64,000 bases of DNA from Dicyema japonicum (taxonomy: Eukaryota; Dicyemida; Rhombozoa; Dicyemidae), in assembly GCA_011109175.1 (NCBI GenBank), contig RDEW01000002.1:810676-874675 (forward strand), given 5' to 3'. The notes under the pieces were generated by a model that saw nothing but the letters and a program-made list of their open reading frames with translations, did not search any database and was not told the origin of the DNA. Position 1 is the first letter of the stretch, and every line of letters starts with the position of its first letter. The translations under genes were made by a program, and so were the position numbers. Of this stretch, positions 7,969-60,073 are shown one piece after another.

Positions 7969-9038
7969 ATGAAAGACAAAATGAAAAGTCTGGTCCTTGA
8001 ACTTCAGGTACGGCTATAATTACTTTCAGAAATACCTCTGTGACCAAATAGAAAAATTAGAGGACGGAGGAAAGTTTACAGTCGAAGATTGGAACCGCAA
8101 AGTCAACTTTTCCCTACAAAATAGAATGGAGAAGAAACCTTCGGAGAAGGTCGCACGTGTTCGCTGGAGGATGCAAAAGTGATCGAAAGGGCCGGAGTGT
8201 GTGTATCTGCTATGCAAGGAACTCTTTCTGAGTTGGCTATTCAAGGAATGCGGACGAGGTAGTTCTGTGTCGTAAACTTCTCAGAGGCCACGTGGATATT
8301 CCTGATAAGGCAAAGTACTTTGTGACTGGTCTAAGTGTGATTATGCATCCGGTAGTTGATTTTGACCAACTTTAAGCAAAATCCTCACGTTTGTACGATG
8401 CATCTAAATACGCGCTATTTTGAGGTTGAAAAGGCTGATGGAGATATAATCTGGTGGTTTGGCGGAGGCAGTGACCTCACCCCTTACTATAAGGATGAAG
8501 ATCAATTCTCAGTCTTCCATAACGCATTGAAAGAGGCATGTGACCAGCTTTCGCCTTCATTATATCCTCTCTATAAGAAACAGGCAGATGAATACTTCTT
8601 TAACGCCGTGAGAGGTATACCCACGTGGGTTAGACTTAGGCGAACACCGTGGTATTGGTGGAATTTTCTATGATGACTTGAACTCGTACCCTAAAGATGA
8701 TCTGTTTGCTTTCGCAAAGCGTTCAACACTCGCAACTATCGATAGTTACGTTACCCACGTGGGGAAACGGATGGGGACTCCGTTCACTGCGGCGGAACGT
8801 GAGTGGCAGCTTTTTCGACGTGGGAGGTACGTCGAGTTCAACCTTATTTACGACCGTGGCACAAAATTTGGAATCCATAATCCCAATTCATCAATCGATA
8901 CAGTTTTGTTGTCTCTCCCACGTGTTGTGGTAGTCATTTCGGTTATTGTAGACGTGGAAGTATGCCTATAAGCCAGAAAAAGGCTCAACAGAATATGAAA
9001 TGCTTGATATTTTAGTTAAACCTCGTGAATGGGCTTAA
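7969..9038 (+). CDS. CPOX: coproporphyrinogen III oxidase (oxygen-dependent), complete, 7 exons
   Basis: Oxidative decarboxylation of coproporphyrinogen III to protoporphyrinogen IX, a late step of heme synthesis. Exons: 7969-8007, 8030-8101, 8125-8258, 8285-8351, 8377-8614, 8640-8923, 8952-9038. The six introns are 22, 23, 26, 25, 25 and 28 nt, all GT-AG. The joined frame is 921 nt, giving 306 residues with no internal stop. Conserved blocks: LEDGGKF near residue 25; ERAGVCVSAMQG; RYFEVEKADGDIIWWFGGGS then DLTPYY; LKEACDQ; RGIGGIFYDDLN; and RRGRYVEFNLIYDRGTKFG near the C-terminus, as in animal and yeast enzymes. The start is the first ATG after an in-frame stop. No mitochondrial presequence is visible, so the product may be cytosolic as in yeast, or an upstream exon was missed. 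The intron-containing frame hides the gene from simple ORF searches. Confidence 0.93.
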
Positions 9039-10084
9039 TTCGTCGTTTCTCTCATCTAATTTTGTTTATTTTGTGTGTTGGTTGTCATAGCAGTAAAAAT
9101 AGGCAAATTCCTTTCATTATAGACAAATGGCTGTAATGAGTTGTGAATGGGTTAATTTGCAATAATTGTCATTAATCAAATAGGCACTTTCATTAGTTTT
9201 AAGTTCACTCCGCGTTACCCATAAGAATGTAAATACTCAGGGTTCCGCTTGTGCCGTTTTTCACAGTCCGTTCTACCGTTTTTATCCATGAAACATTCCT
9301 CTTCGCAGGTCTCCGCAGTTCATTGAGGTCGTCCTCAGTCCTCTGACATTGAAGTTGGTGTTGTAAACTGGGTAGAATAGAGAGACTGAGAGTACGTTAA
9401 AGACAGACATTATTGAATACGCTCAACCAACAAAAAATCACAAAATTTCGCTAATTAAATTGGATAGATGTATAATAGTGTCACAATGACTCCTAAAGCA
9501 TACAGTCTGTGATGTGTCAAGCATTTTCTAAAGTCGGTGAATTATGAAACTAAGGTCCAATTTGTTGAGTATTTTCTAATACATTCCATCCCCCATTTTC
9601 AAAATGCCGCTATTTAATCAATCACAAGTTAATTAATAGTTAGCGACTAATTAAATGTTTTCAATTCTTCTGGTGGCTGAAGCGGGGATACACTAATAAT
9701 ACACAAGTCTATCCAAAACCAATGGATAGAGAAGTAAATATCTAGTTCTTGCAGTTGTGGTAATCTTTAATGGGGGACAGAAGCTTCCAAACCCTTTATA
9801 CGCCATCCTGGGATTGAGTGTCACTTTATACAGATTGGGTACATAAGCCAGTAAACTTTTTCCCGCATAATTTGTTATCATTACCCAAGGTAATCACGGA
9901 GTTAAAAGGAAAGAAAATTCATAACTACCGTAACGGAGAAGGTCTATCAAACGTGGAAGATAATTTTGGATGGCTCTCCAGAAAGGTATAATTTTTTATA
10001 GTTTATTCCTCAACATAATGGATTCATGGTATTCGATTGCCCATTGAGATAATGAACTATAAATGGAAATTTTGACGAAAATTA
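9039..10084. other. intergenic, nothing recognised
   Basis: About 1 kb between the coproporphyrinogen oxidase stop and the retrotransposon tail. Only short ORFs, none recognisable. The block ACAGACATTATTGAATACGC at about 9401 and its surroundings have no obvious partner in the window. Confidence 0.4.
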
Positions 10085-10130
10085 GAGTTTGACAAAATTA
10101 AAAACATTTATTTATAACAATAAAATCGTT

Positions 10131-57179: not shown

Positions 57180-57487
57180 TCAACCGAAATTTACAGCACC
57201 GGGAATCGAACTTATAGAATCTTCTTCTAGACTGAGTCAAAAGCTATGTATGTCAATCGAGCAAAGCACTTTTTAAAGTGTCTCGGCTTGATTGTGAATC
57301 CGACTCGAATGTAGTCGGTCAATGTTTGTAGGTATGAAGATGTGGATCTCTCATTTTTCAGGTTAATCGAATAATCGAATAGTTTGAAGTTTGAAACCGA
57401 CGTTAGAAAAGTGACTCCCCCGTCTCCAAGATTTTTTAATAAAACAAAATCACTAGGCCTCAACTTATTATTTAATTTAATATTCAT
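57180..57487 (-). mobile_element. non-LTR RT fragment
   Basis: 86 codons ending KPRHFKKCFARLTYIAFDSV, a degraded form of the RT palm motif (IDIHKAFDSI at 61880 and 48985). The upstream part is not recognised. Confidence 0.4.
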
Positions 57488-59255
57488 TTATTATTAAAAT
57501 CATTTTTAACATGGCGAACCCTGTATCACATTAGCGCATTATTCAGAGCGTGGTTGCCACGTTGTTTTGGTTGGATCTTGTTCTGTGTGATTTTTCTGTA
57601 GTATTTCTTCATTATTGTATATATACTGGTGGATTTATCAAATGGTGTCGAATGCTGTTATCAAAGTGTATTATATATGTATTTTGGTAATTCTTAATTA
57701 TGGATTATTCTCCAATATTTGATTTGTCTCAAACAGATGATTTTATTTTCACATATTTAATATCCATTTTGTAAATTTTTTTCCTCCACAGTGGGCTTGA
57801 GGGTTTTCTCTGGGAATGTTTGGACTTTTTTGAAGCACATCGCCGGGGGTCGATAATGACCCCGGGGTAGTAATGTATACTACTAAACCTCCACTTTTAT
57901 ATGACACATTTATTATATATATAATTTTTTCTCTATTTTTTGCGATCTCTGGCTGGACATTTAATATTTTAATATCATTGTCGGACTATGCCGTTACATT
58001 TTCGAAAAGATATTGGGATTCAACGTGCATTGAATAGGATTTGCTCATCAAAATTGGAAACTCTTTCGTTGCGATTTGAGATTATCGGACAATTCTATAT
58101 AATTTTAGTTTCTTCATTTTGAATTATTATTTACTTGAATCACAATTATTTTATGACTCAATCTGTCATTCAGATATTCTCTAACACGATAAACAAAAGC
58201 ATCAATTTATTTGTTTAACGCAGGTCTTTGTATTATTATTGTCTCATGGGTTAAAGGAAAAGAGAATACAGTTGAGTTGGGATCCGATTGTTCGGTCTTG
58301 GACTATCCCACATTCTGCAATATTTTTAATGAGATTAGAAAATTTCATAATTTTAACTGAGAAAAATGTATCTTTGATAAATTTCCTCTGTCGGCTTTTC
58401 AAAGAATATTTGATACACCGATTTTCTGAGACGTTTCTTTGTATAATGTTCATTAATGATTATAAAATGTGTGGATTTAATCTGACGATACTTTTCATGA
58501 CGATTTGTACAACCAACGTCCTTCGACATCTTCTAAATTATTCATCAGCATACTGATTAATGTTTTTACGTACAAACGACACAACGTGCAATACAAGATT
58601 TTATTTGAGTATTTTTTTAATATATTTAGAAACCCTAGATCACCACCGTTATTATAGGCAATATGCGTAAAACCATAATAGTTATCGTTTCACACGTGTA
58701 GCAATCACGCAGGCCTTTAATTTAACTCTTTCTTAACGTGGGAGTTGAAATTCAACAGTCTGTCGAACATTAATCCAAGAATTCAGGGAGACCTTGTTAC
58801 TGGTATTGGAAAGGACCAATTAAAATTCTTTGATCTTAATGAGACCGTCTGATTGAATCTTTCAAAAATTCCTCGACTCTCCGGTTTGTTCGGCCTTCCA
58901 TGGATTTGAGTTGTTGAATTCATCACATAACTTATTATTATAGGCAACTATCGTAGAAGTATAATTGTTATATTTCTACACGTGCGCGATTTTTCGGCGA
59001 TTTTTCGGATCAATCTCGTCCTCTTTCCTGGTTTTAGTATTGGCCGTATTATTGCCTGTTTCCATAATAATGATATCACATTCTGGTTAATTGAATAGTT
59101 GAAAACCGACGTAGAAAAGTGACTCCCCGTGCCTTTTTTGCGGAATTTTCGATAATAATATATTCAATAATAATAAATTTTTTTAATTTTTAAATTTATT
59201 GAAACACAAATATTAAATATATATAATTTCAAATAAATTGTAAATACGCGTTGAT
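57488..59255. other. gene-poor stretch with a G+C-rich palindrome
   Basis: 57843-57868 contains CGGGGGTCGATAATGACCCC, a near-perfect hairpin. 58655-58710 and 58930-58985 are a diverged direct repeat (ATAGGCAA, TAATxGTTAT, CACACGTG). The 105-codon ORF at 58239-58556 is not recognised. Confidence 0.4.
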
Positions 59256-60073
59256 ATGGTTCGCATGTTTATACTTTATTCTTAAAGGGTGTTAAAGGAT
59301 TAAAGAGACATTTGAAACAAGTAAATGCTCCCAAAAAGTTTGCCCTAAGTCTCACAAACAGCGAGAGTGTATTCCGATGGCATTGATACCACGAGAGTAC
59401 TTCAAATTTGCCCTTAACTATCAGGAGACAAAGAAAATAGCCAAAAGAAGGATCGTAATGGTCGACAGGAAAATCATAACGCATCATCGCTTTCCGATCG
59501 GCCTAATGAGTAAGCTTAGTTCTCTATGGAAGACGTGATCTTCCTCTCCAAGGTGAACAAGCACTACAGGATGCTCCACGATGCCAAGGGAAGATTCAAG
59601 CCGACTCCTATGGAGAAGCCGTGGTTGAGGTATAAAAAGATTTCATGTCCCCAGGTGAAGCTCTGCAAGGTTAAGAAAACTGTACACACGTGACAGTCGG
59701 ACAATCCGCTTTCAAATCCCGCAGTAAAGGCTAACGACAATATAATGTTCCATTTGTCCACTGGGGAAATTAGGGACCACATAACCATGGACAAAGGCTG
59801 GAGTTATTCCTCATCTCTAGGCAATCTGTGCATCATAACCGGGGGACGTAACTTTGGTATAGTTAGGGTGGTCAACAAGATTGAAAGACACCCTGGTGTG
59901 TATGACATTGTGTACGTGGAAGATCAGGCTCACAACAAGTTTTGTACTCGGTTTGGTGTTTGAATGAATTTAGGATGCAAAATATATTTATTATTGGACA
60001 GGGGAATACTTCATGGATTTCGTTTACCACTGATAAGGACATTAACCTATGGCTGACAGAGAACATAGACTGA
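59256..60073 (+). pseudogene. RPS4: 40S ribosomal protein S4 pseudogene that kept ultrashort introns
   Basis: RPS4 is a small-subunit rRNA-binding protein. Visible: GLKRHLKQVNAPK (N-terminus), then, in another frame, EYFKFALNYQETKKIAKRRI, DRKIITHHRFPIGLM, SKVNKHYRMLHDAKGRF, VKLCKVKK, RDSRTIRF, AVKANDNI, STGEIRD, GNLCIITGGRNFG, KIERHPGVYDIVYV and a C-terminus starting NIFIIGQGN. The blocks follow the order of the normal protein (263 residues in human) but about 17 and about 10 residues are missing near the start and middle, and at least three frame breaks occur. Introns of 29 (59259-59287), 23 (59510-59532) and 23 nt (59951-59973) remain, so it arose by DNA duplication, not by retroposition. 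Confidence 0.82.

What the first reader, a model, noticed from the sequence alone, without database searches (positions are those of the whole stretch)
7969..60073. Genome-wide style of 20-28 nt introns, mode 23 nt
In six unrelated genes or pseudogenes I could place about 40 introns by protein homology; nearly all are 20-28 nt and 23 nt is the commonest. Examples: CPOX 22, 23, 26, 25, 25, 28; PCCB eight of nine at 23-26; OGT 15 of 17 at 20-27. Splicing gives exact frames (CPOX 921 nt, PCCB 1593 nt). Such lengths approach the lower limit for spliceosomal introns. They point to a dicyemid-like animal and explain why simple ORF searches miss the genes.
Basis: partly seen in the sequence, partly recalled or inferred. 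Interest (0 to 1): 0.85.

Follow-up and report, generated by a model that had tools for sequence, protein, structure and literature searches.

The report
Ultrashort introns of a dicyemid animal

Summary
Homology-guided splicing of CPOX, PCCB and OGT (window) and PRPF8 (same contig) gives 63 GT-AG introns. Of these, 60 are 20-27 nt (mean 23.3, SD 1.5, commonest 23) and three are longer (48, 152, 255 nt). Without any GT/AG assumption, 46 of 51 gaps in CPOX, PCCB and PRPF8 still fit GT..AG at the same length. On other contigs, exon spacing in CCT, HSP70 and kinase genes gives 20-28 nt at 33 of 38 adjacent junctions.

Such introns are published for dicyemids: mean 26.2 nt (n=16), median 25 (n=41) and median 27, with very weak 5' splice sites and no branch-point signature. 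The held genome fits: 64.7 Mb, a fast-evolving protostome-type PRPF8, and an ATP synthase beta gene without introns over 470 codons, as reported for Dicyema acuticephalum. 18S rRNA and RNA reads could not be tested.

U1 and U2 snRNAs carry their canonical pairing sequences. U12, U11 and U6atac matches are also present; one search found no print record of this for dicyemids.

Verdict: confirmed, largely already known; a slightly shorter distribution and a retained minor spliceosome are the additions.

The parts
7969..9032 (+). CPOX (coproporphyrinogen-III oxidase) aligned coding region, seven exons
   Evidence: spliced alignment to 38 homologues, score 694 vs 39 reversed control
8008..8029 (+). 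CPOX intron 1, 22 nt, GT-AG
8102..8124 (+). CPOX intron 2, 23 nt, GT-AG (agnostic gap here 35 nt, ends less certain)
8259..8284 (+). CPOX intron 3, 26 nt, GT-AG
8352..8376 (+). CPOX intron 4, 25 nt, GT-AG
8615..8639 (+). CPOX intron 5, 25 nt, GT-AG
8930..8951 (+). CPOX intron 6, 22 nt, GT-AG (28 nt with an alternative donor 6 nt upstream)
25069..28492 (+). OGT (O-GlcNAc transferase) aligned coding region; 27499-27825 not aligned
   Evidence: alignment to human OGT chains
25357..25378 (+). OGT intron, 22 nt
25448..25599 (+). OGT interval of 152 nt (longer intron or poorly conserved stretch)
25717..25743 (+). OGT intron, 27 nt
25824..25846 (+). OGT intron, 23 nt
25937..25957 (+). OGT intron, 21 nt
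26070..26092 (+). OGT intron, 23 nt
26228..26248 (+). OGT intron, 21 nt
26350..26397 (+). OGT intron, 48 nt
26552..26576 (+). OGT intron, 25 nt
26679..26703 (+). OGT intron, 25 nt
26890..26909 (+). OGT intron, 20 nt
27060..27082 (+). OGT intron, 23 nt
27452..27474 (+). OGT intron, 23 nt
28068..28094 (+). OGT intron, 27 nt
28337..28359 (+). OGT intron, 23 nt
45786..47748 (-). PCCB (propionyl-CoA carboxylase beta) aligned coding region
   Evidence: spliced alignment to 38 homologues, score 1633 vs 32 reversed control
47631..47655 (-). PCCB intron 1, 25 nt, GC..AG when slid
   Evidence: agnostic gap 47635-47659; slid by hand
47494..47516 (-). PCCB intron 2, 23 nt, GT-AG
47170..47424 (-). PCCB intron 3, 255 nt, GT-AG
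46975..46998 (-). PCCB intron 4, 24 nt, GT-AG
46802..46824 (-). PCCB gap 5, 23 nt, no AG at this length (GT..TG)
   Evidence: agnostic gap 46801-46823; slid by hand
46588..46613 (-). PCCB intron 6, 26 nt, GT-AG
46483..46505 (-). PCCB intron 7, 23 nt, GT-AG
46127..46149 (-). PCCB intron 8, 23 nt, GT-AG
45905..45927 (-). PCCB intron 9, 23 nt, GT-AG
59294..60070 (+). RPS4-like copy with several disruptions (likely decayed)
59510..59532 (+). RPS4 intron, 23 nt, GT-AG
59951..59973 (+). RPS4 intron, 23 nt, GT-AG

Best explanation
The 20-28 nt interruptions are ordinary U2-type spliceosomal introns, shrunk to near the minimum, in the nuclear genome of a dicyemid. They are removed from pre-mRNA by a spliceosome whose U1 and U2 snRNAs keep their normal pairing sequences. 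Shown: the interruptions, their lengths, their GT-AG ends, their frame-breaking nature, their spread over many contigs and the presence of U1 and U2 genes. Inferred: that they are spliced (no RNA), that recognition is by intron definition with GT, AG, AT-richness and the tight length window doing most of the work, and the taxonomic name.
For: 60 of 63 GT-AG introns in four genes are 20-27 nt, mean 23.33 SD 1.49. 46 of 51 boundary-agnostic gaps in CPOX, PCCB and PRPF8 fit GT..AG. 33 of 38 adjacent exon pairs in CCT, HSP70 and kinase genes give 20-28 nt. U1 has 5' ACUUACCUG and U2 the GUGUAGUAUCUG branch-binding stretch. Published dicyemid introns: mean 26.2 n=16 (PMC2222250), median 25, mean 24.93 SD 2.51 n=41, AT 69.9% (PMC2483917 Table 2), median 27 (PMC6543705). 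Published dicyemid introns have the weakest known 5' boundaries and no branch-point signature; here positions +3 to +8 carry 0.16-0.61 bits each against equal base use and at most 0.14 bits against intron composition, and WCTRAY occurs in 1 of 60 (shuffled 1.6). ATP synthase beta is open for 470 codons, and D. acuticephalum ATPS lacks introns; the other three PF00006 genes are interrupted. The genome is 64.7 Mb against 67.5 Mb in D. japonicum.
Against: No RNA data. The PRPF8 tree leaves the position inside protostomes unresolved. COX1 was not found, so mitochondrial minicircles were not testable; 18S was not obtained. The mean is 1.6 nt below D. acuticephalum (Welch t 3.7; my set excludes introns over 30 nt and 35 of its 60 come from one gene). 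Two of nine PCCB gaps are not GT-AG. In OGT, aligned to one distant sequence, only 8 of 20 agnostic gaps fit GT..AG. Five of 38 adjacent exon-pair estimates fall outside 20-28 nt (-1, 7, 13, 38, 54), and of 32 less adjacent pairs only 10 fall inside.
Confidence: 0.92

Rival explanations
1. The introns are real but the animal is not a dicyemid: an orthonectid or another reduced spiralian that reached the same intron size independently.
For: The PRPF8 tree does not resolve the position; grouping with the orthonectid Intoshia is not rejected (p-AU 0.33). No 18S or mitochondrial check was possible.
Against: Published orthonectid introns have a median of 57 nt, mostly over 30 (PMC6543705). In the passages I saw, dicyemids are the only animals named with such introns. 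The intronless ATP synthase beta matches Dicyema.
Confidence: 0.07
2. The gaps are DNA-level internal eliminated sequences or assembly and pseudogene artefacts, not introns.
For: Single-base deletions in homopolymers appear to exist in this assembly, and the RPS4 copy is decayed.
Against: GT..AG at 52 of 71 agnostic gaps against 2.4 expected; one tight length class over many genes and contigs; PRPF8, a core spliceosome gene, has 35 such gaps between conserved exons.
Confidence: 0.01
3. A ciliate or nucleomorph genome with 18-25 nt introns.
For: Paramecium introns average 24.8 nt and Bigelowiella nucleomorph introns are 18-21 nt (quoted in PMC2222250).
Against: PRPF8 is read through with the standard code without an in-frame stop and groups within Bilateria at 98/97. 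Named CPOX and PCCB hits among the 120 listed are nearly all animals, though the top PCCB hit is a chytrid protein.
Confidence: 0.005

Closest known systems
Dicyema acuticephalum introns (Aruga and others 2007, PMC2222250; PMC2483917 Table 2)
   Same: short, uniform lengths (mean 26.2 n=16; median 25, mean 24.93 n=41), AT-rich, weak 5' sites, no branch-point motif, ATP synthase beta without introns
   Different: the present set is slightly shorter (mean 23.3, commonest 23) and PRPF8 introns are 95% AT
Dicyema sp. genome (PMC6543705) and Dicyema japonicum genome (PMC6736024)
   Same: genome-wide short introns: median 27 with two thirds under 30 in the first; mean 38.2, 6.2 introns per gene, mean exon 198 bp, 67.5 Mb in the second
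   Different: the tail of longer introns was not sampled well here; the species of the held genome is unknown
Intoshia linei (orthonectid) introns (PMC6543705)
   Same: shortened introns in a reduced spiralian parasite
   Different: median 57 nt, most over 30 nt
Paramecium tetraurelia and Bigelowiella natans nucleomorph introns (as quoted in PMC2222250)
   Same: 20-35 nt (mean 24.8) and 18-21 nt introns; weak signals according to PMC2483917
   Different: unrelated protists; arose independently

Membership tests
U2-type spliceosomal introns | GT-AG ends | tested here: met
   46 of 51 boundary-agnostic gaps in CPOX, PCCB and PRPF8; 52 of 71 in all four genes against 2.4 by chance
U2-type spliceosomal introns | U1 and U2 snRNAs with canonical pairing sequences in the genome | tested here: met
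   U2 155 bits, above its gathering score; U1 69.0 bits, just below its gathering score of 69.5 (none of its 11 matches reaches it), with 5' ACUUACCUG
U2-type spliceosomal introns | branch-point motif upstream of the 3' end | tested here: inconclusive
   WCTRAY in 1 of 60, shuffled 1.6; no excess, as reported for other dicyemids
U2-type spliceosomal introns | excised from mature mRNA | not testable with these tools
   no RNA reads held
Dicyemid gene architecture | most introns under 30 nt | tested here: met
   60 of 63; 33 of 38 adjacent exon-spacing estimates at 20-28 nt
Dicyemid gene architecture | very weak 5' splice sites and no branch-point signature | tested here: met
   one search compared; my bit measure is not the same as the published 0.5-bit score
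Dicyemid gene architecture | exons near 200 bp, genome near 65-68 Mb, GC near 37% | tested here: met
   PRPF8 6889 coding nt in 36 exons, about 191 nt each; 64.67 Mb; window GC 37.4%; published values
Dicyemid gene architecture | ATP synthase beta gene without introns (reported for one species) | tested here: met
   470 open codons on a 1.39 Mb contig; 3 of 3 other PF00006 genes interrupted
Phylum Dicyemida | 18S rRNA phylogeny | not tested
   search unanswered four times and no dicyemid 18S reference held
Phylum Dicyemida | protein phylogeny within Spiralia | tested here: inconclusive
   PRPF8: Bilateria 98/97, protostomes 95/94, unresolved within (13 rows); an earlier quick tree of 21 rows put it beside flatworms at SH-aLRT 87
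Phylum Dicyemida | mitochondrial genes on minicircles | tested here: inconclusive
   no COX1 match in the held assembly
Orthonectida (Intoshia-like) | median intron near 57 nt, most over 30 nt | tested here: not met
   60 of 63 are 20-27 nt against the published value

The most novel reading that the evidence does not exclude
This may be the shortest and most uniform intron set known in an animal (mean 23.3, SD 1.5 nt), with introns in at least one core gene (PRPF8) that are almost only A and T and carry no recognisable branch point, while the genome keeps both a canonical U1/U2 spliceosome and a minor (U11, U12, U6atac) one. That would make intron length itself a main recognition signal, and would pose the question of how a minor spliceosome with long consensus sequences works in a genome of 23-nt introns.
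Probability: 0.3. Interest if true: 0.6.

Novelty: already known. Interest (0 to 1): 0.3.

Why it matters
Introns this short leave almost no room for the usual signals, so dicyemids are a natural animal test of what a spliceosome minimally needs. They also explain why ordinary ORF searches miss genes here: in PRPF8 the reading frame breaks about every 190 coding nt. The retained minor spliceosome makes a sharper question testable, namely whether U12-type introns escaped the shrinkage.

Tried and rejected
Ab initio gene finding with a codon model trained on CPOX, PCCB and PRPF8 failed leave-one-out: 5 of 35 PRPF8 introns recovered, 0 of 6 in CPOX, 0 of 7 in PCCB. It was dropped and no number in the report rests on it.

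The 20 sampled 10-kb stretches were fetched for that purpose and served only as background there and in a U12-type scan. That scan of 361 kb of held sequence, with one pattern, gave one hit, in a U1 locus, which I do not take for an intron.

A mitochondrial check by COX1 found nothing. The 18S search did not complete.

Exon-spacing estimates are blind to most introns whose length is a multiple of three, because such introns do not split the frame; 21, 24 and 27 are missing from the list of adjacent pairs. For kinases I entered 48 of the 142 rows, those that I saw to have a neighbour within about 1 kb on the same contig and strand. For CCT and HSP70 all 40 and 24 rows were entered. Of 70 colinear pairs, 32 were set aside as not adjacent in the profile (more than 6 residues apart or overlapping); of these 10 estimates were 20-28 nt and 22 were not, which is expected where exons between them were missed.

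The literature was searched with six answered queries. Papers were seen as search listings and passages only, none in full; the Ogino 2010 paper was seen only as cited.
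Full report
What was checked. The window is G000:C87:810676-874675 in an unnamed 64.67 Mb assembly of 191 contigs. I wrote a protein-profile-to-DNA aligner that allows GT-AG introns of any length from 15 nt up at one flat cost, so short introns get no advantage, and a second mode that allows gaps with any ends from 6 nt. Profiles came from 38 CPOX and 38 PCCB homologues out of the 120 listed for each, 15 animal PRPF8 homologues out of 120 listed, and human OGT as printed (with slightly lower intron and gap costs).

The observation. 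In four genes the GT-AG mode gives 63 introns: 60 of 20-27 nt (counts: 20 nt 2, 21 nt 2, 22 nt 13, 23 nt 19, 24 nt 12, 25 nt 7, 26 nt 3, 27 nt 2) and three of 48, 152 and 255 nt; for the 60, mean 23.33, SD 1.49, median 23. The set is CPOX 6, PCCB 7, PRPF8 35 and OGT 15. Not counted are the two PCCB gaps without GT-AG ends, one unresolved PRPF8 spot (called as a frameshift in one mode and an 11-nt gap in the other; by eye a 29-nt GT-AG intron is possible), and two 23-nt introns in a decayed RPS4 copy. In the agnostic mode 46 of 51 gaps in CPOX, PCCB and PRPF8 can be slid by up to 8 nt onto GT..AG at the same length. Over all four genes, with up to 4 nt of sliding, it is 52 of 71 against 2.4 expected from random placement; OGT, aligned to a single distant sequence, gives 8 of 20, that is 12 of the 19 failures. 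Changing the intron cost, the minimum length or the donor set keeps 23 as the mode in CPOX, PCCB and PRPF8. Of the 60 short introns 58 change the frame or hold an in-frame stop, which is why ORF searches miss these genes.

Genome-wide. PRPF8 lies about 340 kb away on the same contig. For other contigs I used exon match coordinates: the DNA gap between consecutive exon matches minus the profile residues between them. Of 38 adjacent pairs in CCT, HSP70 and kinase genes, 33 give 20-28 nt (20: 1, 22: 12, 23: 10, 25: 5, 26: 4, 28: 1), and the rest give -1, 7, 13, 38 and 54. In the three interrupted PF00006 genes, worked by hand, four adjacent pairs give 22, 23, 23 and 26, and three less adjacent ones give 22, 25 and 67. 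The method is largely blind to lengths that are multiples of three. The estimate of -1 in HSP70 genes (one adjacent and three less adjacent pairs) is not an intron: the sequences show apparent single-base deletions at homopolymers (read by eye).

What the organism is. Published dicyemid introns average 26.2 nt, SD 1.9, in 16 introns (PMC2222250, passages seen); have median 25 and mean 24.93, SD 2.51, in 41 introns, with 69.9% AT, the weakest known 5' boundaries and no branch-point signature (PMC2483917, passages and table row seen); have median 27 in Dicyema sp., against 57 in the orthonectid Intoshia (PMC6543705, passages seen); and average 38.2 in a 67.5 Mb D. japonicum assembly with 198-bp exons and 36.7% GC (PMC6736024, passages and table seen). 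The present data match: mean 23.3, 76.7% AT, positions +3 to +8 holding 0.16 to 0.61 bits each against equal base use, WCTRAY in 1 of 60 introns, PRPF8 exons of about 191 nt and window GC 37.4%. A prediction from PMC2222250, whose figure legend says that Dicyema ATP synthase lacks introns, was tested: the one PF00006 gene matched without interruption is a mitochondrial-type ATP synthase beta, open for 470 codons on a 1.39 Mb contig, while the three other family members are interrupted. The PRPF8 tree of 13 rows puts the query in Bilateria (98/97) and with protostomes (95/94) on a long branch, unresolved inside; holding it with Intoshia is not rejected (p-AU 0.33). Naming it a dicyemid therefore rests on gene architecture and on exclusion, not on a marker-gene tree.

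How it most likely works. U1 with 5' ACUUACCUG and U2 with its branch-binding stretch are present; U2 has 22 matches over the gathering score, while none of the 11 U1 matches reaches its score, the best having 69.0 of 69.5 bits. The simplest mechanism is ordinary two-step splicing by intron definition across about 23 nt. With no visible branch-point motif and hardly any 5' consensus beyond GT, base composition and length must carry much of the information; that step is inferred. A is the commonest base at -7 (30 of 60), a weak hint of a branch site close to the 3' end that AT-rich repeats could also produce. Of the 16 short introns whose length is a multiple of three, 14 hold an in-frame stop against 10.4 in shuffles (P 0.04), and 8 in either shifted frame. 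This is in line with the idea, recalled from Paramecium work, that retained introns are purged through premature stops, but the sample is small.

Novelty. The trait is published for dicyemids, so the finding is confirmed and already known. The distribution here is 1.6 nt shorter than that of D. acuticephalum (Welch t 3.7), with the caveats that my set leaves out introns over 30 nt and that 35 of its 60 come from PRPF8. U12 (85.4 bits), U11 (67.6) and U6atac (37.0), each over its gathering score and each a single match among the candidates scored, point to a minor spliceosome; U4atac and the minor-class proteins were not searched. The one search that combined dicyemids with U12 listed ten of 862 papers, those with more terms first; only PMC2483917 among the ten held all four terms, and the passages on dicyemids that I saw there do not speak of U12.

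Noticed in passing
L026 (C68:163471-163599), L051 (C1:1591391-1591510), L052 (C34:237761-237858): Single matches for U12, U11 and U6atac snRNAs with canonical core sequences: a minor spliceosome in a genome of about 23-nt introns.
   Followed up: partly
L004 and L005 (PRPF8, about C87:1216719-1224419): The short PRPF8 introns are 95.1% AT inside, against 64.5% in CPOX, PCCB and OGT; exon GC differs too (32.9% against 44.3% in CPOX and 47.0% in PCCB).
   Followed up: partly
L047, L048, L049, L050 (three HSP70 genes) and PRPF8: Apparent single-base deletions in homopolymer runs of conserved genes, probably residual assembly errors; some apparent pseudogenes in the window may be due to this.
   Followed up: partly
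window 46802-46824: A 23-nt gap in PCCB keeps frame and conserved residues only without an AG end (GT..TG); by eye a 38-nt GT-AG reading would drop five conserved residues. Unresolved.
   Followed up: partly
window 47631-47655: A 25-nt PCCB intron reads GC..AG.
   Followed up: partly
G000:C181:1092635-1092787: A second, 89% identical piece of the CPOX gene on another contig.
   Followed up: no
window 10391-12244 and 48957-49337: Reverse transcriptase ORFs (RVT_1) of retroelements.
   Followed up: no
window 21773-22348 (-) and 63088-63414 (+): Two similar ORFs in opposite orientation, sharing stretches such as NGRLLMLMVF and SKGGWL; no Pfam match for the first, the second not searched.
   Followed up: no
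window 37124-37366: ORF that looks like a MutS-family (MSH4-like) fragment by eye; the name is recalled, not from a call.
   Followed up: no
G000: No COX1 match in the assembly: mitochondrial DNA is missing or too divergent.
   Followed up: partly
PRPF8, CPOX, PCCB and OGT introns: 14 of 16 short introns with a length divisible by three hold an in-frame stop, 10.4 expected from shuffles, P 0.04.
   Followed up: partly
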